Shown here piece after piece: positions 1-37,969 of a stretch of 37,969 bases of DNA (positions within the stretch are counted from its first letter, which is position 1; every line of letters starts with the position of its first letter). Source of the DNA: Fibrobacter sp. UWP2. GTDB lineage: Bacteria; Fibrobacterota; Fibrobacteria; Fibrobacterales; Fibrobacteraceae. The stretch spans positions 1 to 37,969 of the forward strand of contig NZ_FQYM01000026.1 in the NCBI RefSeq assembly GCF_900141705.1. Reading direction: 5' to 3'. The notes beneath the pieces are model-generated. The model saw only the letters and a list, made by a program, of their open reading frames with translations. It did not search any database and was not told the DNA's origin. A program made the position numbers and the translations under genes.

Positions 1-95
1 TTGCTTGGTGTTTTTTTGCTGAACCAAATTTACAAGTTGGAGACCACCTTTTTCTTTTTGGTTGCAGAAATTTCAACTAACTTTGGGGCATCTTC
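1..95 (+). repeat. Left copy of a perfect 95-bp terminal inverted repeat
   Basis: The first 95 bases are the exact reverse complement of bases 37875-37969; the match stops at base 96. The repeat's inner edge falls within the stop codon of the VWA gene, which uses bases 94-96. Read outward the stretch has no complete gene. It may be the edge of a repeat that stopped an assembler, or a true inverted repeat flanking the locus. Confidence 0.9.
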
Positions 96-2208
96 AAAAA
101 TTTGTATTTCCGATTTTTTCTTCCCAAAAGGTAGAATTCAAAATTAGCCCAGATTTAGATAAAAAATTAACCGGTCTTTCAGAGGATTCTCCATCATAAG
201 AGCCATATACTTTTACTAGCCTTGCTTTCAAAGGAACAACAAATTCAGACGATTCTTCATGAGGATGCATTGATAAAGATTTCAGTTGTTCATTCCCCGG
301 GAAAGACCCCAACAAAGCCGCCACAGCATCAACAACCTTTAATTTAATACCCTGTTCTTTTTCGTAATAGACCCCACCCGTTTCCACAGCCATATCAGAA
401 AGTACATTTAGATCAGCATCATCACCGTAAGCAAACGAGTATATTGAAATATTTTTTGAACGATAGAGCTGAGTAACATCATCTAAAGTTTTTTCTCCCC
501 CATTATTCAATCCATCTGAAACAACATACATTAGTTTAAGACTAGCCGGATTATCAATAGCAAAATCATTTATTACCTTGTAAAGAGCATCATATAAAAC
601 AGTCTTACCCGCCGGAACAATAGAATTAATTTTATCGGTTATTTCGCGAATTGAAGGATTCCCTTTCTTTTCATACACTTTAATAAGTTTTTCGTTAAAG
701 GCATAAATGGTTATGGATATATTGGACACATCGTATTCCGCATCTAGGCTCAAAAAACTCTGTGCAATAAATTTCGCAGCCAACTTGGCTTCATCCATTT
801 TCCCATTTACATTCATGCTCCCTGAGCAATCAAGCAAGATAACCATTTCCACACTAGTTTTATCAACCCATTGAATGTTCAGATATTTTCGAGTTTCTTT
901 GCGATATTCTTGAGGAGACCTGCCAGCAAGTTCTACCTTCATATATGGCAATACATATGTTTTAGCAACTTCGCATGTGTCATTACGAACCCATGATGCA
1001 TATCCATCAAGAACCTTTCCGTTATCAGGATTATAATTCATTAAAAAAGATTTTGCAATAAAAACATCCGATTCTGTAGGTTTCTTTTTATTTAAGGATT
1101 TATACCATCGTCTATAATTCTCTCCCGGATCAGCCCCATATACAAAATCATACTGAGGATCTCTAGTCAAAAGGTCCCATGCCGATGACAGTCCTTTAGA
1201 ATCTTCGCAGCACATCGCCATCGGTGAATATGGATTAATATTAAATGAAGTACTCAAATTAGCCCACTGCCATTGAATATTATCATCACCGCAAGCTTTC
1301 GATGCGGCAACGTCATATTGATAATACATCAAAGAATGAGCGACAGAAACCCTATTTATTCCAGGCAAATCCATTCCCCATGGGAAAACGCCTTCATCCC
1401 TAATATCGATACGACGGCCACTTGCATCTTTCAAATTAAACGAGTAAATACCAAAATCCAACTGAGATGCATTTACCTGATCAATCATGGCAAAATCATT
1501 CACCATAAGCCCTGTTCCCCCAAGAGCCGTACTACTCAACCCCTGTGGGATACGGCCCACAACACCATTATTTCCTTTTATCGGGACAAATACTACTGGT
1601 GTTCCCTGCGAAAAAACAGACATATGTTTTTTGAAATAGAGCGGATAATTTAATAAATTTCCTTTATCTTTGATTGTAATCCAATCCGTAACTGGATCAG
1701 CCGTTATTTCTAAAGGGAACGCATAATTCGTTGGCTCCAAAAGAGTCTTTGCATAATCATCATCAATAGCATACCGATAATGCATTGTTTCATGAGTCAA
1801 CGTTATTCCAAAATCCAAACGACTCTGATCATCCGCAATACTCTTACCTGCGCCCCAATCATCTGAAACCCCTATTCCATCCGTTCCAGCTCCAGGCCAA
1901 ACATTTGTTATTTTCCATTTAATATCCGTACTAGAACAAAATCTATTTTCTGGATAGATAATAATATTTCCGATAAAATTAGCACCATTGGTCGCTTCAT
2001 ATAAACCATCTGCATAATAGCCAAGAATATCCTCGTATATATCCTTTTCAGCCTCTGTGGGATTCTTTTCCATGCATATGGTCAAATCATGAACTTCTTC
2101 AGACGGAGAACCATCAGCATCATACGCAGTCACTCTTACCCTTGAAAAAGGAGAATTCAAAGCATAAACCGCAGATGAAAATAGGAAAAGAAGAAGTAAT
2201 TTTTTCAT
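94..2208 (-). CDS. Secreted CLCA-like protein: HExxH metalloprotease motif plus VWA domain
   Basis: Predicted exported protein of 704 residues. The chosen ATG at 2208 begins a clean signal peptide (MKKLLLLFLFSSAVYA); the nine upstream in-frame codons would spoil it. At residues 139-152 the segment HETMHYRYAIDDDY carries a zinc-type HExxH followed by acidic residues and Tyr. This is the same layout as the HExxH...DEY segment of CLCA family proteins, which also place a VWA domain downstream. The VWA domain runs from about residue 455 to 640, with MIDAS motif DCSGS starting at residue 460, a downstream Thr (KTVLYDAL) and Asp (VVSDGLNNGG). A role as a self-processing or cell-surface protease/adhesion protein is inference. 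The gene is AT-rich compared with the next operon and sits alone, divergent from a small exported protein. It lies next to the contig-end repeat. Confidence 0.8.
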   Translation of the reverse strand: MKKLLLLFLFSSAVYALNSPFSRVRVTAYDADGSPSEEVHDLTICMEKNPTEAEKDIYEDILGYYADGLYEATNGANFIGNIIIYPENRFCSSTDIKWKITNVWPGAGTDGIGVSDDWGAGKSIADDQSRLDFGITLTHETMHYRYAIDDDYAKTLLEPTNYAFPLEITADPVTDWITIKDKGNLLNYPLYFKKHMSVFSQGTPVVFVPIKGNNGVVGRIPQGLSSTALGGTGLMVNDFAMIDQVNASQLDFGIYSFNLKDASGRRIDIRDEGVFPWGMDLPGINRVSVAHSLMYYQYDVAASKACGDDNIQWQWANLSTSFNINPYSPMAMCCEDSKGLSSAWDLLTRDPQYDFVYGADPGENYRRWYKSLNKKKPTESDVFIAKSFLMNYNPDNGKVLDGYASWVRNDTCEVAKTYVLPYMKVELAGRSPQEYRKETRKYLNIQWVDKTSVEMVILLDCSGSMNVNGKMDEAKLAAKFIAQSFLSLDAEYDVSNISITIYAFNEKLIKVYEKKGNPSIREITDKINSIVPAGKTVLYDALYKVINDFAIDNPASLKLMYVVSDGLNNGGEKTLDDVTQLYRSKNISIYSFAYGDDADLNVLSDMAVETGGVYYEKEQGIKLKVVDAVAALLGSFPGNEQLKSLSMHPHEESSEFVVPLKARLVKVYGSYDGESSERPVNFLSKSGLILNSTFWEEKIGNTNF

Positions 2209-2215
2209 ACAAAGT

Positions 2216-2221
2216 ATTATA
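2216..2221 (-). promoter_or_regulatory. TATAAT-like -10 element upstream of the VWA gene
   Basis: On the minus strand a perfect TATAAT lies 7 nt upstream of the ATG at 2208, so a transcript from it would have almost no leader. No good -35 hexamer is seen 16-18 nt further upstream, and no Shine-Dalgarno sequence stands next to the start. This is a motif match only. Confidence 0.25.
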
Positions 2222-2246
2222 ATCAAACTCCCCATAGAACGCTATC

Positions 2247-2310: not shown

Positions 2311-2982
2311 ATGCGCAGTGCAGTAATGTACATCCTTTTGTTCGCATGCTCCATTTTTGCCGCAGGCCCCAACGATGATTATCCAGAATCCGGAGACTGT
2401 TTCAACATAATCAGCGTGCTTGATGATTTCAACATCATCAGTGTTAAAGGCATGCAGCTGCGGAAAAATTTGGCTGATAGCACCATTATTGGTCTTCATC
2501 AGACCGCTTCCTTTTCTGGAATTGTTGATTCCGTAGTTGACACCGCATACATTGAATACATAACCTCCAATGGAAAGATTTCTTCCGAAAAAGGATTGTT
2601 CTATATAGGTGCAGACTCAACCGAAAAATATTCCAAACGAATTACTCTACAGAGATTTGAAAAACACGGCAATGCAGAATCTTCTATGGACAAAATTCTG
2701 GATTCTTCCTGGATTTTTGTTCCCCATGAAATTGATGTAAATATTGGAGATTCAATTTACATCAAAGATTATTCAGCCATGTTCACATCCATTTGGAAGA
2801 ATGGCGAGAATTGCACTCTCCAACATTGGGCAAACTTAAAAGGGGAATTTTTTGTTACACATGGAAATTTTTTAGGTTTGCAAAATCCAAACATTTCCAT
2901 AAAACAAACCCGTAAAATGCATAACAGGGATGCAAAAGGAAAAAAATCCCTTAATTGCAATACACGTAAAGCGCGCTTCTAG
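2311..2982 (+). CDS. Small exported protein of unknown function
   Basis: I do not recognise a family. The 223-residue product begins with a short basic and hydrophobic segment (MRSAVMYILLFACSIFAAG) that fits a signal peptide. A Cys at residue 13 makes a weak lipoprotein signal possible, but Phe in the lipobox argues against it. The segment FNIISV occurs twice about ten residues apart near the mature N-terminus, encoded by similar but not identical DNA, which suggests a small internal duplication. The body is acidic and mixed in character. The last 25 residues are strongly basic. A second in-frame ATG at 2326 is an alternative start. The gene is AT-rich, like the divergent VWA gene. It ends just before a sharp change to GC-rich DNA at about 2985-3000. 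It may be regulated together with the VWA gene through the shared palindrome. Confidence 0.6.
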   Translation: MRSAVMYILLFACSIFAAGPNDDYPESGDCFNIISVLDDFNIISVKGMQLRKNLADSTIIGLHQTASFSGIVDSVVDTAYIEYITSNGKISSEKGLFYIGADSTEKYSKRITLQRFEKHGNAESSMDKILDSSWIFVPHEIDVNIGDSIYIKDYSAMFTSIWKNGENCTLQHWANLKGEFFVTHGNFLGLQNPNISIKQTRKMHNRDAKGKKSLNCNTRKARF

Positions 2983-3000: not shown

Positions 3001-4062
3001 CTATTTCCCTTTCAGGTGATTCTTGCGCATGAACGCGAGCGCATGGCTGCGGCGACGGGCCGTCTCTTGAAGGTTCACCGACTCGTCAAACTCGTCCACA
3101 ATCTCGCGGCCGAGAATCTCCTCGAGCACATCCTCGAGGCTCACGATGCCCGCGATGGAACCGAACTCGTCCACCAGGCCCACCATGTGACCGCGCTGTT
3201 TTAAAAAACGGAGCAACAGCTTGTCGAGGGTCACGCTGTCGGGAATCAGCTGGAGCGGCCGCATAAGCTGGCGGAGCTTTACATCGCGCTTGCCCTCGGC
3301 CAACAGGTTGTAGGCGTCACGACGCAGGACAATGCCTATCCAGTCGTCCTTTTTGCCACCATATAGTGGTATACGGGAGAACGGCCAGTTACCGCGTTCG
3401 TCCAAGCTCTCGCCAAGGCTCTTGTCGGCGGGGAGGCTGAACACCACCTGGCGCGGGGTCATGACCTTGCGCGCGGGGATGGACTTGAGGGAGAGAATGT
3501 TCTTGATGACTGACGCCTGCTGACGGTCGATAACGTCTTCGCGGAGCCCGAGACTCACCAGGCTGTGGATGTCCTCGACGCTCACGTCCTTTTTTTCTTC
3601 GTCCTCGTGCGTCCAGTGCTTGGTAAGCGTGAGGCAGAGCCAGATGATGCCCGTCCACGAGAGTGCCTTGGTAATGTAGTAGAAAGGCACGGCGACCAAC
3701 GGGGCCATGGTCTTCGCCTGCTTGACGCCCAATGTTTTGGGGGTGATTTCGCCGAACAGCAAAATGAGGATGGTCAGCACTATGGGGAGCGCCATCGCCC
3801 CCGCAGGGGAAAGCCGCTTTACGGCAAGGGCCGTGGCGAGGGACGCGCCCACCGTGTTTGCCACCGTGTTCACCACGAGCACCGAGGCGATGTAGCGGTC
3901 GATATTCTTTTTCACGTGGGTCATGTACCGGGCGGTAAACTTTTTGTTCTTTTGCAAAAACTCCACCGTCGCGGGAGGCACGCTGTAAAAGGACGCCTCC
4001 GTCACGGAGCAGAACGCCGAAATGGCGAGGCAGCCCAAAACAGTCAATACAATCGCAAACAT
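3001..4062 (-). CDS. CNNM/CorC-type membrane protein (DUF21 plus CBS pair)
   Basis: This is a 353-residue inner-membrane protein of the CNNM/HlyC-CorC family, whose members have been linked to Mg2+ or Co2+ transport. The N-terminal DUF21 transmembrane domain spans about residues 1-150 with several hydrophobic segments. It carries the conserved TEASF segment near residue 21 and GEITPK at residues 104-109. Two CBS repeats follow at about 196-330, with FSRIPLY and GIVSLEDVLEEILG motifs. The chain ends soon after the CBS pair, so the C-terminal CorC_HlyC domain of longer homologues is missing. The ATG overlaps the stop codon of the upstream sppA-like gene by one base (TAATG), which indicates translational coupling in a two-gene operon. 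The GC-rich composition suggests core genome. Confidence 0.88.
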   Translation of the reverse strand: MFAIVLTVLGCLAISAFCSVTEASFYSVPPATVEFLQKNKKFTARYMTHVKKNIDRYIASVLVVNTVANTVGASLATALAVKRLSPAGAMALPIVLTILILLFGEITPKTLGVKQAKTMAPLVAVPFYYITKALSWTGIIWLCLTLTKHWTHEDEEKKDVSVEDIHSLVSLGLREDVIDRQQASVIKNILSLKSIPARKVMTPRQVVFSLPADKSLGESLDERGNWPFSRIPLYGGKKDDWIGIVLRRDAYNLLAEGKRDVKLRQLMRPLQLIPDSVTLDKLLLRFLKQRGHMVGLVDEFGSIAGIVSLEDVLEEILGREIVDEFDESVNLQETARRRSHALAFMRKNHLKGK

Positions 4063-6356
4063 TATTCCATCCCAACCAAGGAGGGTTCAATCGCCCAGAA
4101 CTTGGTTTGTTCAAAATCAACAAAATAATCAAGTATGGCGGACGGGTTCTTCACCAAAAAATCGCTATCGGTGTTGAGTTGCACCAGTTCCACGTCGGTA
4201 GACTCGCCTATCTCGGCCAGCTTTTTCGCCATAGCGATGGCGTCGTCCATGCCGCCCAACGACTGCACCAGCCCGGCATCAAAAGCCTTGTGGCCAATCA
4301 TCACGCGACCGCCGCCATAAGCGGTATCGACCGTCGCCTGCGGGATTCCCGTCGCCTTGGAGACTATGCCCGTAAAGCGGTTGTAGAAGTCGTCCATGTA
4401 GTCTTGCAGGGCCGCCTTTTCTTCATCGGTCCAGGGTCGGGCAAAGGTTTCCGCATCGGCGTGGTCATGCGTTTTTACAGGCTCGGCACGGAGTCCCACC
4501 TTTTGCATGAGCCCGCTCAGGTCGACCTTGCCGCCATAAATGCCGATGCTCCCCACAATAGAATAGCTCTCAGCCATAATGTGGTCGGCTCCGCAAGCAA
4601 TGTAGTAGGCGCCCGAAGCGCCCATGCTGCCGATGCTCGCCACCACAGGGATTCCTTGTTCACTCACGTGCCGCAAGGCGTGCCAAATCTTATCAGAGGC
4701 GATGGCGCTCCCGCCTGGCGAAGATATGCGCACCACCAACGCCTGCGCACGCGTACCCGGAAGCCTGCGCAAATCCTCGGTCACGGCACGTTCCATACGC
4801 GAGTCAATAGAGCCGTCGATATTCAGTAGGGCAATCTCGGCACGGTGCGCCCAGCTCTCGTCGAACATGCGACGGTCCATGGGCGCCCAGGTCTTGAAAT
4901 GCGCCTGGGGAACATCCAAATCAAAGAAAGTCTTGAGAGCATAGGAGGGCACCTGGTCCAGGTAGAGCATGGTGTCGACGAGTCCCGCGTTCTTGGCGTA
5001 CTTCGCCGTGACCATCGGGATTTTTGCGAGGGAGTCCAGCTGGGCTACCCGCTCCTCGAGGCCCTGGGCTGTACCGCGACGGCCATACGAGACCATGGTA
5101 TTCAACGCCTTCCACAAATCCTTGTAGAGGGTTTCCCTGTTCTCGCGGGCTTCCACCGACATGGAGTCGGCTACGTAGGGTTCCACCGCCGACTTGTAGG
5201 CGCCATGACGCAAGAACTCCACCTTGACGCCAAGCTTGTCAAAGAGCCCCTTGTAAAAAGTGACGTTCCCGCCCAGGCCGCGCCAGGCAAAGTGCGCCGA
5301 AGGTTCCACCACAATGCGGTCGGCCGAGGAGGCCGCCAACAAAACGGAAGGACGTACGTCGTCGAGGTAAGCGACCACCTTGCCACCGCGAGCGCGGTGA
5401 CGCATGACCAGGCGGTTGATTTCGCCCGAAATGCCGACGTTCCCCTTGTAGCCCGAAAAATCGAGAACCACAAGCCCGCAAGAGCGGTCATGCAGCATAT
5501 GGTCAAAGAGATTGCGGACCTTCAAAATTCCAATGGAGCTCTTTTGGAAGAACATGAATTCTTCCTCCACCTCGGACACTTCCATGTTCAAGGGGACACG
5601 AATGATTTTTGCAGACCAGGCCGCATCGGGGTTACGCGAACGGTGGAATCCCCAGGCGCCGCGCTTGGGCAGGTAATCGTCGTAAACGGTAGTGGCGACA
5701 TCGTTGTAGCCGCCAATCGACGCCGAAAGCGTGAGCGTGTACTCGTCGTCGTCGCCATAAACAGGCATCTTGAATCCAAAGCGGTAGCCGTACAGTTCCA
5801 GTTCAAAGAGAAGGCGGTGTTCTTCCCAGTCCTCGAGGTCATAGCTTACACCAAAGTTACGACCCAAACGCACCGTGGCACCAATATTTTGCACGCGGTC
5901 CATGGACTCGGGGCCCAAATACAGCAGGTTGTCGCAGGAATAGCCCAGCGAAAGGTTCCGGAACGGGCGGATCATGAGGCCCAAGCCGTAGCTCCACTCC
6001 GTGCCCTTAAAGCCGGCACTGCGGAGCGCCGTAACGCGGCTCCCGTAAAAAACATAGCGGTTCAGCAAGTCCGTGGCGTGCGTGATGCTCCAGCGGGTCT
6101 CGTCGTACTGTTCGTCATCAAAACGGTAATCAAAACCCACGCCCCAATGGCCAAGGTTCCCGCCCGCGCGAAACATGGAGATTCCGTCGTCGTACTGGTA
6201 ATCGGTAAGGGCGCCCCACGAATCAAAGGCGGTGAGCCCGGCCGGGTTTCCAAAAACGCCATGCCCCCCTTCCAGCGAAACAAAGCGGGATTCGCCTGGA
6301 AGGTACGCCTGGGCGGCGGCCGCAAGGGCAAATAAAGTTGCTAAAATCTTTTTCAT
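4062..6356 (-). CDS. sppA: SppA-type signal peptide peptidase with N-terminal beta-rich domain
   Basis: A 764-residue protein. The ATG at 6356 starts a clear signal peptide ([17 protein letters not shown]). The C-terminal ~500 residues form the tandem S49 peptidase arrangement of long SppA. The general-base Lys is K388 in [10 protein letters not shown] and the nucleophile Ser is S581 in MGASGAYY, close to the spacing of E. coli SppA (about 200 residues). Known SppA cleaves leftover signal peptides in the membrane. The odd part is residues 20-240, which are rich in alternating aromatic and glycine strands (for example [16 protein letters not shown]). They resemble an outer-membrane beta-barrel or PorV-like domain rather than any part of SppA. 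If real, this would place the peptidase at or across the outer membrane and change its substrate. It is followed directly by the CNNM gene. Confidence 0.85.
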
Positions 6357-6376
6357 CGTAAACATATTAGAAAAAA

Positions 6377-15843: not shown

Positions 15844-17055
15844 TTGAAGCAAGCAAAAAAAATATTAGCCTTCTTTTTATTGGCTGCATGTTCGTGGGAC
15901 TCTTCTAACAGTCCTCAAGACTATTTACCTCTCAACGACAGCGAATACCCATTCGCTGGCGTTCCGCGCCTTGTTATAGAAACAGATGATTTCCGAGGCA
16001 TTCGCGACAAAGAAACGTTAATCAACGCGAAATTGCAAGTTTACGAGAAAGACGGGCCGAGCAGCGAAATCATGACTTTGACCGTAAGAGGCCGCGGAAA
16101 TTCGTCTTTTCGGATGTCCAAATACGGAATCAAGCTCGACTTTGACCAAAAACAGAGTTTGTTCGGAATGCCCAAAGGGACCGATTTCGCCCTGGTCGCT
16201 AATTTCATAGACAAAACCCATGTCAAAAACTATGTAACCTATCAGCTCGCCTCCATACTGGGGGACGACTATTCACCAAAGGCTCAATTTGTCGAGGTCT
16301 TTTTCAACCGCGAGTACATAGGACTATACCTTTTGGTTGAATCCGTAAAAGTCTCAAAAAACAGAGTCATTCTAAACAAAAATAAAAACAGCTATTTAGT
16401 TGAAAAGACAACATCCCATGATGGTAAGCCCTTCTTCGAAACAAAAAACGGAAATCTCTTTGAAATAAAGTATCCCAAAGCCCCCTCACAAGAATCCATA
16501 GACATCATTGTCGAGCACTTCAACAAATTTGAAGATGAAAAAAAAGATACTGTTCATTTTATTCCATCCAATTGGATTGACACCCTTGATTTTGCAAGGT
16601 ACTATTGGATTCAAGAATTTGCCAAGAATTTTGACGCAAGATTTCTTCGAAGCATCTTCGTCACATGGGAACAGGGAGACGTCCTAAAAATGGGCCCCGT
16701 TTGGGATTTTGATTTAGCCTATGGAATTTTCAGGACGGGGACAACAGAACATAAAGACTGGATCGTGCGCAACTTCGGATGGTATAAATGGCTTTGGAAA
16801 AACGATTCCTTTAAAAATAGCTGCCATAACTATTGGGCCAAGAACAAGCACATCTTCAAAAACGTTCCCGATTCCATAGAATCTGTTTCCCGACGGATAA
16901 GAAAAGCCGTCGAAAACGACAACAAGCGTTGGCCAACGCTCAATTTCACAGAAAACATGTATCACGACATCGCTTTCGAATCCTATGAAGATGCGGTAGA
17001 CTCACTAAAAAAATGGGTTTCAGAACGTTATTATTGGATTGACGGGAACCTGTAA
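15844..17055 (+). CDS. CotH-kinase-family lipoprotein
   Basis: A 403-residue predicted lipoprotein. It starts at TTG (15844), three bases after the wzc stop. No usable ATG would keep the lipobox LAAC with C16, so the TTG is well supported. CotH-type proteins are secreted atypical protein kinases. Seen here are the family segments LTVRGRGNSS, YGIKLDF, NFIDKTHVKNYVTYQLA, EYIGLYLLVE, and the metal-binding DFD in GPVWDFDLAYG. The position directly after wzc suggests a role at the cell surface during capsule assembly, perhaps phosphorylating a surface protein or glycan; this is inference. The gene is clearly more AT-rich than wzc, so it was probably acquired separately. An A8 tract lies in codons 4-7. 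Confidence 0.85.
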   Translation: MKQAKKILAFFLLAACSWDSSNSPQDYLPLNDSEYPFAGVPRLVIETDDFRGIRDKETLINAKLQVYEKDGPSSEIMTLTVRGRGNSSFRMSKYGIKLDFDQKQSLFGMPKGTDFALVANFIDKTHVKNYVTYQLASILGDDYSPKAQFVEVFFNREYIGLYLLVESVKVSKNRVILNKNKNSYLVEKTTSHDGKPFFETKNGNLFEIKYPKAPSQESIDIIVEHFNKFEDEKKDTVHFIPSNWIDTLDFARYYWIQEFAKNFDARFLRSIFVTWEQGDVLKMGPVWDFDLAYGIFRTGTTEHKDWIVRNFGWYKWLWKNDSFKNSCHNYWAKNKHIFKNVPDSIESVSRRIRKAVENDNKRWPTLNFTENMYHDIAFESYEDAVDSLKKWVSERYYWIDGNL

Positions 17056-35920: not shown

Positions 35921-37969
35921 TCACTTAAACTTCGCTGTATACGAAACACCGTTTTCAGGCATAATTACACGGGTCGGGGACGTTTCTCCGTCGCTCCAGC
36001 CTGTAAAAATTTCGCTACCATTAGCCATGGCCGTCACACTAATCCCAAGTCCCGTAAAGAAGTCAATTTTCATTTCAGGTCGGTCCAGAGGGAGCCCGTG
36101 AACGAGGATTCTTCCGCCACCTTCTACAGACAACGTAACAGAAACTGTTTCTAGGAGCTTAAAATACTCCGCAAGCTCCTGCATAACGATAGCTTGACGC
36201 TCCGAGGCAAAGGTCTTCAGTTGGTCCAGCCCCGACTTCATGTGGGAGGCGTTCAAATTCCAGCGTTTTTGATCGCGGGCCACTTCGCTTTCCATTTCCG
36301 ACATCATAGCGTCAATGCGGCTCAAAATCCGGCCCGACTCAAAATTCATCGACAAAAGCACAGCCATGCGGTTGACGAACGCCACACGGAAGTCCTCGTT
36401 CTCCAACATCCTCCGCAACAAGAGCGTATATTCGGGGCCGTTTGGCCACGATTCGCCGTTCTCCGCCGTTGCAAACTCAAATATGTTGTTCTTGTACTCG
36501 CTGTGGTTGTTGCCAAAGCCAAAATCCAGATCGTACAAGAACCACCTCCATGGCGTACCTGGATTATGGCAACGCCACTTTTTGAGGTTGTTCCCGGGCC
36601 AATCCCTATTGTTCACAAAAATCTCGGTATGGACGTAATTCATAAAGTTGTCCACATCCATGAGCGAGGCAACATAGGCATAATTCTCGTCGTTGTCCAG
36701 GTGGTGCGTCTCGAGCCAATCCATGAGCGCCACGTAATCGACGGCAGAGCCGCTGGTCACCGAGTTGTCGGCCTTGAGCAAATCGATTTCATCCGAATCG
36801 TAGCCGTAATGCGTCTCAAAGTAGTACTCGTTGGACTTTTCGCGGATGTTGTGGATGCCATAGTACTCGCCGTTGTAATACACGACGGCGGGTCTCCCCC
36901 GCTGGTAATCGACGCCCAGGCCCTCCGTAATGGAACTCGCCAGGCGGTCCTGGATATAGTTGGAGCCGTAATTGCCGCCGTTGTTGCGCAAAACGAACCA
37001 CTTGAACTTTTTCAACTCGGGGAACTCCGGGAACAGCGGGTACTTCAAACGGTTATTCCCGTACTTTTCGCGGAACACAATTGCGACGGACTTTTTCTTT
37101 TGCATCCTGCTGTAGTTGCCAAAAATCTGGAAACCCGCATTCTCGGCAAAGGCGGGCGAGTTCACGCCGGGCTCGAACAGCTCCACAAACACGGGGAGTT
37201 CCTTGTCCAGCCAGTAGTTCGCCCCGTAATGGGGCTCCGCCGTTTGCGCATTTGGACCTTCCATGTATATACCCGTGTCGGGATCAAAGAACGCCCCCGG
37301 GTCACCTACCACAAACACGGAGGCTACCGCAGGTTGGGACTCAAATAAATAGGTGCGCGTCTCTACAGGGCTGGGAGTCGCCCCTGCAACAAAGGAAGCG
37401 CAGCGCACAACGCTCGTGGAATCCAGCACCAGCGAAGTCACCTGCGGGCTCAACTCCGTCGGGAGCGCCCCGCCAAGTTCACAGCGGACATTTTCACCGG
37501 CGTCAAACGCCAATGCCACCGGCTGTGCATAAAAACCCGAAGGTGGTAGCTTTGCCGAGGGCGATGGCGACAGCTCACCCGAGACCACCCCAAGGGTAGC
37601 GCCGTACGGAGACGATTCCGCATAGCCCCAAATCATTGCCCCCACAGAGGAGGTCCCCAACGCCCACGATTTCCCCGTAGGCAATTCGGGGTATGCGACA
37701 GAATCCAGAATTTGGCTCTGCGCGTTTACTAAATAGAGGGAACCGCCCTTTTTGCTCGCCTTAAAACTGGCGTGCGGTTCATGGCCGCGATTGCGGACGA
37801 TGTACGACGAAATGTCCATCGTCACTTCCTGCATTTCCTTGGACTCAGGACTAATGCGAGTCCCGTAAATATTCGAAGATGCCCCAAAGTTAGTTGAAAT
37901 TTCTGCAACCAAAAAGAAAAAGGTGGTCTCCAACTTGTAAATTTGGTTCAGCAAAAAAACACCAAGCAA
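35921..37969 (-). CDS. Lamin-tail/CotH-kinase secreted protein, 5' end cut by window edge
   Basis: The frame stays open to the window edge, so the true start and any signal peptide are missing. In the 682 visible residues a lamin-tail-like part (ISSYIVRNRGHEP, GGSLYLVNAQSQILDS) spans about 50-125, and a chitobiase C-terminal-like segment spans about 135-210. The CotH domain runs from about 250 to 600 with FGNYSR, VVYYNGEYYGIHNIREKS and the DLD metal site in WRWFLYDLDFGFG. A divergent InlB B-type repeat closes the chain from about 610 (VTLSVEGGG, then FTGWSDGE). CotH proteins are atypical secreted kinases. The first ~31 codons lie inside the terminal inverted repeat. It ends 29 bp before ugd on the same strand and may share a transcript. 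It is a second CotH protein, longer than the lipoprotein at 15844. Confidence 0.85.
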   Translation of the reverse strand: MLGVFLLNQIYKLETTFFFLVAEISTNFGASSNIYGTRISPESKEMQEVTMDISSYIVRNRGHEPHASFKASKKGGSLYLVNAQSQILDSVAYPELPTGKSWALGTSSVGAMIWGYAESSPYGATLGVVSGELSPSPSAKLPPSGFYAQPVALAFDAGENVRCELGGALPTELSPQVTSLVLDSTSVVRCASFVAGATPSPVETRTYLFESQPAVASVFVVGDPGAFFDPDTGIYMEGPNAQTAEPHYGANYWLDKELPVFVELFEPGVNSPAFAENAGFQIFGNYSRMQKKKSVAIVFREKYGNNRLKYPLFPEFPELKKFKWFVLRNNGGNYGSNYIQDRLASSITEGLGVDYQRGRPAVVYYNGEYYGIHNIREKSNEYYFETHYGYDSDEIDLLKADNSVTSGSAVDYVALMDWLETHHLDNDENYAYVASLMDVDNFMNYVHTEIFVNNRDWPGNNLKKWRCHNPGTPWRWFLYDLDFGFGNNHSEYKNNIFEFATAENGESWPNGPEYTLLLRRMLENEDFRVAFVNRMAVLLSMNFESGRILSRIDAMMSEMESEVARDQKRWNLNASHMKSGLDQLKTFASERQAIVMQELAEYFKLLETVSVTLSVEGGGRILVHGLPLDRPEMKIDFFTGLGISVTAMANGSEIFTGWSDGETSPTRVIMPENGVSYTAKFK
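37875..37969 (-). repeat. Right copy of the perfect 95-bp terminal inverted repeat
   Basis: Exact reverse complement of bases 1-95; the next base inward (37874) breaks the match. In this copy the minus strand is in frame with the CotH protein, so this side is probably the native coding context and the left copy is the unexpected one. Confidence 0.9.

What the first reader, a model, noticed from the sequence alone, without database searches (positions are those of the whole stretch)
94..2208. Bacterial CLCA-like protein: HExxH plus acidic/Tyr motif before a VWA domain
HETMHYRYAIDDDY lines up position by position with the zinc motif of animal CLCA proteins, and a MIDAS-complete VWA domain follows about 300 residues later, as in CLCA. 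Animal CLCAs cut themselves, so a bacterial counterpart could be a self-processing surface adhesin or protease.
Basis: partly seen in the sequence, partly recalled or inferred. Interest (0 to 1): 0.5.

Follow-up and report, generated by a model that had tools for sequence, protein, structure and literature searches.

The report
Transposon-cut CLCA-like metalloprotease in Fibrobacter
A Fibrobacter genome carries a relative of the animal CLCA proteins (a secreted zinc-protease domain joined to a binding domain), cut short here by a transposon end and sitting beside a small secreted protein of unknown function; bacterial CLCA relatives were already known, but the extra domain and the neighbour found here look new.

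Summary
The protein is a distant relative of the bacterial CLCA-like proteins described in 2013: its N-domain, VWA excluded, matches 15 such domains from other phyla by profile-profile comparison (E 3.6e-42). Its predicted N-domain looks metzincin-like (modest, Z 7-8). It fails Pfam's CLCA model, as do the Shewanella-type proteins tested, so I call it CLCA-like. Three things were not foreseen. (1) The gene is interrupted: its stop lies in a 95-bp insertion-sequence end; relatives have about 1,300 aa, and part of the lost C-terminus lies on another contig. (2) Among the loci examined only genus Fibrobacter carries about 120 extra residues between zinc motif and Met-turn. (3) A small secreted protein of unknown family is encoded at all 10 Fibrobacter-genus loci examined, in five settings, and often persists where the protease gene is absent or eroded. 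Best reading: a secreted zinc endopeptidase with a VWA substrate/partner domain; the neighbour may be its inhibitor or client (inference). Self-cleavage is untested.

The parts
94..2235 (-). CLCA-like metalloprotease/VWA gene, 5' portion only (713 codons); Met10 at 2208 is the likelier start (by eye)
   Evidence: open frames of relatives 1,304-1,342 aa
1753..1794 (-). zinc motif HETMHYRYAIDDDY (residues 148-161)
   Evidence: H,E,H,Y,D,Y invariant in 24 rows; in predicted helix 136-153
1351..1713 (-). extra segment of about 120 residues (about 175-295) between zinc motif and Met-turn, seen in genus Fibrobacter only
   Evidence: motif-to-SIM gap 128-153 in 10 Fibrobacter-genus loci; 10-40 in 15 other loci where the script placed both motifs, 68 in L089; alignments
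1327..1335 (-). SLM, Met-turn-like (residues 301-303)
   Evidence: M303 at least 90% conserved; Q in L081-L083
292..855 (-). VWA domain (residues 461-648)
817..831 (-). MIDAS DxSxS (residues 469-473); with T545 (601-603) and D574 (514-516)
1..95 (.). end of a high-copy insertion sequence; the gene's TGA stop (94-96) lies on its inner edge
   Evidence: exact inverted repeat of 37875-37969; 40 matches listed in G000 (of 54 candidates), all 100% identical over 93-95 bases, many at contig ends
2311..2982 (+). conserved neighbour ('partner'): secreted-looking 223-aa protein of unknown family, divergent to the protease gene
   Evidence: homologues at 10 of 10 Fibrobacter-genus loci; no significant Pfam, NCBIfam or PHROG hit

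Best explanation
The ORF is the 5' part of a gene for a secreted CLCA-like zinc metalloprotease. A signal peptide exports it (inferred from sequence). A metzincin-like domain binds zinc through H148 and H152 plus D159 and/or D160, with E149 as catalytic base (inferred from conservation and from CLCA work in print). A VWA domain with an intact MIDAS binds a metal ion and a protein ligand or substrate (inferred). Relatives go on through a choice-of-anchor-X/beta-rich segment and a C-terminal region. In this genome an insertion sequence has cut the gene after codon 713, so at most a protease+VWA fragment is made, and part of the rest lies on contig C11. In genus Fibrobacter the protease gene sits beside a gene for a small secreted protein, which I take to be its inhibitor or client (inferred, weakest step). 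Shown by computation: homology, domain order, truncation at the repeat, neighbour linkage. Supported but not settled: metzincin-like fold. Not shown: proteolysis, self-cleavage, localisation, partner function.
For: N-domain homology: hhalign of 10 Fibrobacter-genus against 15 N-domains from outside Fibrobacterota, cut before the VWA, Prob 100, E 3.6e-42 over 250 columns. The outside set comes; its taxa (Shewanella, Chloroflexus, Synergistota and others) overlap those of Lenart et al. Table 2. Link to animal CLCA: TIGR00868 in 6 of 8 proteins and in L082, far below that model's cut-off; PF08434's best match in 7 of 10 genomes is sub-threshold, and by place and frame length all 7 lie inside these CLCA-like ORFs. 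Fold: N-domain model pLDDT 82.6, pTM 0.86; 50 of 50 VIA rows shown are adamalysin/ADAM/ADAMTS entries, Z 7.2-8.1 (many rows are the same enzymes, and VIA only re-aligns Foldseek's first 1000). HExxH (model residues 123-127) lies near the end of helix 111-130, as in metzincins (recalled topology). Interruption. Neighbour.
Against: P0001 itself gives no PF08434 or TIGR00868 match. For the N-domain Foldseek has no match at E <= 0.001; its first row is a viral capsid protein, and EF-Tu, sugar-binding and other unrelated chains stand among the metzincins. VIA Z of 7-8 can be a common arrangement by the tool's own note. A sequence profile of 15 N-domains finds no convincing solved structure (best E 0.018, a bovine antibody chain; IgA proteases 0.11). 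I had no coordinates, so the zinc site was not superposed. Three relatives lack the Met of the Met-turn; L085 and L087 have lost HExxH. The gene is truncated and may be dead. About 250 codons of the middle were not found in G000, so a deletion or a lost contig also took part.
Confidence: 0.7

Rival explanations
1. Animal-CLCA-like self-processing surface protein: the protease cuts its own chain C-terminal to the VWA, in cis or trans, and the fragments stay associated.
For: Same CAT-VWA-beta order as CLCA2, whose self-cleavage near residue 700 needs zinc and HExxH (PMC10669480, passages); L082 aligns with TIGR00868 positions 307-688.
Against: No cleavage site was identified or looked for by alignment; no self-cleavage data; the animal Cys-rich region is absent.
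Confidence: 0.25
2. In this genome the gene is simply a pseudogene: the insertion sequence ended its function and nothing useful is made.
For: Truncated at an IS end. The family is eroded elsewhere: C-terminal remnants in G117 and G141 (by eye), fragments in G158 and G004.
Against: The remaining 713 codons are open with all motif residues intact. [quoted passage not shown]
Confidence: 0.5
3. It belongs with peptidase family M64 (IgA-peptidase type) rather than with CLCA.
For: The M64 motif HExxHxxxxLxDEY is close (PMC3650047); the M64-type BF3526 peptidase appears in Foldseek; IgA protease chains appear at E 0.11 in a profile search of PDB sequences.
Against: No PF09471 hit to P0001; sub-threshold in 3 of 8 relatives, E 0.037-0.19; homology to VWA-bearing bacterial CLCA-like proteins is direct and strong. 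No M64 profile was compared directly.
Confidence: 0.06
4. The neighbour has no functional tie to the protease and is merely a common secreted Fibrobacter protein that shares loci by descent.
For: Partner homologues occur in 32 of 167 Fibrobacterota genomes, 21 of them without an N-domain match; shared descent alone could give the matching divergence.
Against: It is at 10 of 10 Fibrobacter-genus protease loci examined, in five settings by my reading; divergence of partner and protease correlates (Mantel r 0.87, 0 of 5,000 permutations), confounded by shared ancestry.
Confidence: 0.4

Closest known systems
Bacterial CLCA homologues (Lenart et al. 2013, PMC3650047); here the Shewanella-type protein L104
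   Same: HExxH...D(E/D)Y zinc motif, SIM (Met-turn-like), N(F/L/H)ST and SAW motifs, VWA with MIDAS, choice-of-anchor-X segment in longer relatives; N-domain homology E 3.6e-42
   Different: Fibrobacter-genus proteins have about 120 extra residues after the zinc motif; P0001 has DDDY instead of DEY; Pfam finds Big/cadherin repeats in L104 and L098 but not in P0001 or P0003; an adjacent secreted partner; the word Fibrobacter does not occur in that paper's main text
Animal CLCA1/CLCA2
   Same: zinc motif (HEWAHL in CLCA2), CAT-VWA-beta order; VWA fold matches 6pyo
   Different: no PF08434 match, no Cys-rich region, self-cleavage untested, truncated here
Peptidase M64 and adamalysin-type metzincins
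   Same: predicted N-domain fold resembles metzincins; similar motif
   Different: no Pfam match of P0001 to these families
KLIKK protease-potempin pairs of Tannerella forsythia (PMC7296668, passages)
   Same: a variable secreted protease gene with a gene for a small exported protein next to it
   Different: potempins are described there as lipoproteins that inhibit the protease, encoded directly upstream; here the partner is mostly divergent, has no lipoprotein look in most copies (by eye) and unknown activity; homology not tested

Membership tests
CLCA (PF08434-defined) | PF08434 CLCA model over its gathering score (25.6 bits) | tested here: not met
   no match for P0001. Also 0 of 8 relatives over cut-off, 5 of 8 sub-threshold, best E 0.0028, and 0 of 10 genomes over cut-off: the test does not separate this protein from the Shewanella-type ones.
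CLCA (PF08434-defined) | HExxHxxxGxxDEY consensus | tested here: inconclusive
   5 of 7 fixed positions in P0001 (A for G, D for E); 7 of 7 in some relatives
CLCA (PF08434-defined) | CAT domain followed by VWA and beta-rich domain | tested here: met
   CAT+VWA in P0001; the beta-rich part only in longer relatives: L082 to TIGR00868 307-688, choice-of-anchor X in P0003, L080, L082. The fibronectin domain was not tested.
CLCA (PF08434-defined) | Cys-rich region after the catalytic core | tested here: not met
   no cysteine between residues 162 and 300 of P0001
CLCA (PF08434-defined) | zinc-dependent self-cleavage | not testable with these tools
   needs protein
bacterial CLCA-like proteins | homologous N-domain independent of the VWA | tested here: met
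   hhalign Prob 100, E 3.6e-42; in the tree the 10 Fibrobacter-genus rows form one group, 100/100
metzincins | metzincin fold with the HExxH helix in a zinc site | tested here: inconclusive
   leans to yes: 50 of 50 VIA rows shown are metzincins, Z 7.2-8.1, rmsd 3.2-4.2, 144-161 residues; but Foldseek E > 0.001 with a mixed list and no residue-level check
metzincins | Met-turn methionine | tested here: met
   M303 in P0001; Q in 3 relatives, L081-L083
Peptidase M64 | PF09471 over cut-off | tested here: not met
   no match for P0001; sub-threshold in 3 of 8 relatives
potempin-type inhibitor (partner) | inhibits the neighbouring protease | not testable with these tools
   adjacency only

The most novel reading that the evidence does not exclude
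Genus Fibrobacter has turned a CLCA-like metzincin-VWA protein into a two-gene module: the extra domain between zinc motif and Met-turn, found in this genus alone among the loci examined, is the docking site of a co-encoded secreted partner that inhibits the protease or protects the cell from it. The partner genes (up to three in tandem, and orphans) outlive repeated loss of the protease gene, as immunity genes do, which points to a protease used at the cell surface against neighbours or competitors rather than to a housekeeping enzyme.
Probability: 0.2. Interest if true: 0.65.

Novelty: new variant of a known kind. Interest (0 to 1): 0.42.

Why it matters
CLCA proteins are medically studied, and no structure of a CLCA catalytic domain turned up in the PDB searches made here (only the CLCA1 VWA, 6pyo). 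A bacterial relative with a natural partner protein would offer a tractable system for structure and regulation. For Fibrobacter, known as a cellulose degrader of the rumen (recalled), a secreted protease that is lost, eroded and IS-interrupted while its neighbour persists would be a new lead on surface competition.

Tried and rejected
P0001 alone against genome contigs found no relative; a family alignment was needed. PF08434 in 60 relatives gave weak hits in 6, none at this gene family and none over cut-off. In 369 and 385 genomes of two other classes it gave no protein over cut-off that could anchor the family to Pfam; the E limit of 0.001 there also hid the known weak match in G167, the one hit has stops inside, and nothing rang at all, so these calls do not show absence. 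I suspected that the extra segment is a phage-type E1_FCCH-like beta domain (recalled motif); Pfam (3 segments) and PHROGs (1 segment) do not support it. That animal CLCA has its Cys-rich region at the same place rests partly on recall and is not used. Chance HExxH was rejected. The full-length model search was filled by VWA chains, so the N-domain was folded alone; families not listed there are not excluded. phmmer of the Shewanella-type protein against PDB sequences listed other VWA proteins, not CLCA1. The right IS end on C11 resembles the 95-bp end over about 27 bases (score 33; maximum of 300 shuffles 32): suggestive, not proof. The transposase-like ORF beside another copy has no Pfam hit, so 'insertion sequence' rests on copy number, contig ends and that ORF. 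A8 in 11 genomes with relatives from outside genus Fibrobacter gave nothing; that call had no positive control, but A8 rang in 32 of 167. Of the 25 loci, 15 form the outside set; not in it were 5 Fibrobacter (used on the other side), 2 Chitinispirillales, and L114 (frame-split), L117 (contains N), L118 (VWA only). The outside loci were found through two short patterns of a related alignment, which favours those stretches.

Full report
What is there. The ORF at 94-2235 on the minus strand encodes 713 aa. The zinc motif HETMHYRYAIDDDY is at residues 148-161, the VWA domain at 461-648 with a complete MIDAS (D469, S471, S473, T545, D574). The window is a whole contig (C26, 37,969 bases) of a genome (G000) of 3.23 Mb in 72 contigs. 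Same-genus genomes such as G030 are Fibrobacter MAGs: the contig of G030 has the length of the Fibrobacter contig behind L112. So the window comes from genus Fibrobacter.

The gene is interrupted. Window bases 1-95 are the exact reverse complement of 37875-37969. A search of G000 with this 95-mer listed 40 matches of 54 candidates, all 100% identical over 93-95 bases, many at contig ends. In the continuation of one copy an ORF is open, without a Pfam hit. The gene's TGA stop lies at 94-96, on the repeat's inner edge. Relatives in G030 and G033 have ORFs of 1,305 and 1,336 aa. A 505-aa query from the missing part of the G033 protein matches C11:117-851 with its residues 259-503, 63% identical. 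C11 then runs into genes that I read as rplM, rpsI, an MscS-like gene, rpsB, tsf and pyrH; rpsB and tsf also lie on that side of the gene in G033, with other genes between. C11 begins with a sequence resembling the 95-bp end, in the orientation expected for the other end of one element (marginal). About 250 codons between the halves (P0003 residues from about 748 to 999) were not found in G000.

What it is related to. P0001 alone matches only VWA models in Pfam above cut-off and no NCBIfam model above cut-off. Of 60 genomes (own included) 12 had a match to P0001 at E <= 0.001; in 7 of these it covered VWA only; full-length relatives were in G030 (48%) and G033 (45%). With an N-domain alignment, 15 of 167 Fibrobacterota genomes have a match at E <= 1e-4. 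A scan of genome contigs with a 13-row alignment gave 25 loci, among them Shewanella, Pseudoalteromonas, Robiginitomaculum, Chloroflexota, Verrucomicrobia, Sumerlaeia and Synergistota. These overlap the taxa in which Lenart et al. (PMC3650047; abstract, passages and sections 7-8 seen) described bacterial CLCAs. Their motifs, such as HEWGHYAYGVFDEY, fit the CLCA consensus. Profile-profile comparison of 10 Fibrobacter-genus against 15 outside N-domains, cut before the VWA, gives Prob 100 and E 3.6e-42 over 250 columns. The animal model TIGR00868 matches 6 of 8 relatives (best 9.2e-29) and the Fibrobacter protein L082 (7.3e-14), but not P0001, P0003, L080 or L116; all are far below its cut-off of 900.85 bits. 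PF08434 is reached by no protein tested, though its sub-threshold matches in 7 of 10 genomes all lie in these ORFs. I therefore call the protein CLCA-like and do not file it under PF08434.

Fold. The full model (pLDDT 79.5, pTM 0.76) gives VWA matches in the rows shown, the solved CLCA1 VWA among them. The N-domain alone (pLDDT 82.6, pTM 0.86) has no Foldseek match at E <= 0.001. Metzincins and the BF3526 peptidase recur in that list, but its first row is a viral capsid protein and EF-Tu and other unrelated chains are mixed in. All 50 rows shown by VIA-align are adamalysin-, ADAM- or ADAMTS-type metzincins, Z 7.2-8.1; many are entries of the same few enzymes. I take this as leaning to a metzincin fold. 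The zinc site was not superposed.

A genus-specific segment. Between the DEY-type motif and the SIM/SLM motif the 10 Fibrobacter-genus loci have 128-153 residues. In 15 other loci for which the script placed both motifs it is 10-40, in L089 68; for 10 loci the pattern failed, and in L108 it hit a later site, where the alignment shows a short gap. The segment is predicted as strands with short helices and matches no Pfam or PHROG family.

A conserved neighbour. The 223-aa ORF at 2311-2982(+) has a signal-peptide-like start (by eye) and homologues at 10 of 10 Fibrobacter-genus loci: window, L050, L051, L078, L079, L080, L081, L082, L083, L084. In seven it lies divergently on the 5' side, in up to three tandem copies. 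In L081-L083 a short paralogue lies at the 3' side and a full copy one ORF away on the 5' side. The full-length copies aligned share a tail with NR(D/N)AxG(K/R) and a last residue Y or F. The loci fall in five settings by my reading of the flanking ORFs: window/G033; G030/G119/G136-C8; G136-C11; G130; G143/G144/G150. Genome tally: partner in 32 of 167 Fibrobacterota genomes; all 9 genus genomes with a complete N-domain match (G000 among them) are included, as are G004 and G158, which keep fragments; 21 have the partner without an N-domain match. Of these 21, G117 and G141 keep what I read as a C-terminal remnant of the protease gene beside the partner. The four other Fibrobacterota genomes with relatives lacking the segment (G038, G057, G063, G094) have no partner match, nor have 11 genomes of loci from outside the genus, one of which appears to be G057 again. 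Segment and partner thus go together, but within one clade (100/100). Protease and partner divergence correlate (Mantel r 0.87, 0 of 5,000 permutations), which shared ancestry could also cause.

Mechanism. Shown: homology, order of domains, truncation, linkage. Inferred: zinc by H148, H152 and D159/D160, E149 as base, a MIDAS-bound ligand on the VWA, extracellular protein substrates. In print, CLCA2 self-cleavage needs zinc and the HExxH glutamate (PMC10669480, passages), and in CLCA1 a CAT+VWA fragment was the more active protease (PMC6851300, passages). The IS-cut gene would encode a similar piece, which is suggestive only. The nearest precedent for the gene pair is the potempin-KLIKK arrangement (PMC7296668, passages). 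The rival that the partner is unrelated to the protease remains strong (0.4).

Novelty. Bacterial CLCAs are known since 2013. I found no paper on a Fibrobacter CLCA: a search for both words gave 4 papers, seen as a listing only, none apparently on this subject, and three searches on bacterial CLCA relatives (listings) gave PMC3650047 as the one that deals with them. New here are the Fibrobacter subfamily, its extra segment, its neighbour and its repeated erosion. Verdict: new variant of a known kind, interest 0.42.

Noticed in passing
window 35921-37969 (-): The CotH-kinase-type protein (PF08757, 1.6e-40) at the other window end also runs into the same 95-bp insertion-sequence end, so its N-terminus is probably cut as well.
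   Followed up: partly
window 15844-17055 (+): A second CotH-family protein (PF08757, 4.8e-40) lies within what I read as a polysaccharide/LicD-type gene cluster.
   Followed up: no
L085 1978-5148, L087 4529-7678 (G063): Relatives with the zinc motif replaced (REFARYTY, both His to Arg) but the MIDAS kept: likely pseudo-proteases; PMC3650047 describes substituted sites in CLCAs.
   Followed up: no
L159, L160 (G117, G141); L091 (G158); L092 (G004); L094, L086: Copies of the same gene family that look eroded or frame-broken, several still beside the partner gene.
   Followed up: partly
L169 (G150 C28), L158 (G008), L168 (G013), L164 and L165 (G112, G001): Partner genes at places where related genomes carry the protease gene but these do not, by my reading of the flanking ORFs.
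   Followed up: partly
window 3001-6365 (-): A CNNM/CBS membrane protein and a large S49 peptidase follow the partner gene; same order in G033 and G141.
   Followed up: no
L088, L089, L090: Deep-branching Fibrobacterota relatives with HEWGH...GLGDEY in which the pattern D.S.S(M/V) was not found.
   Followed up: no
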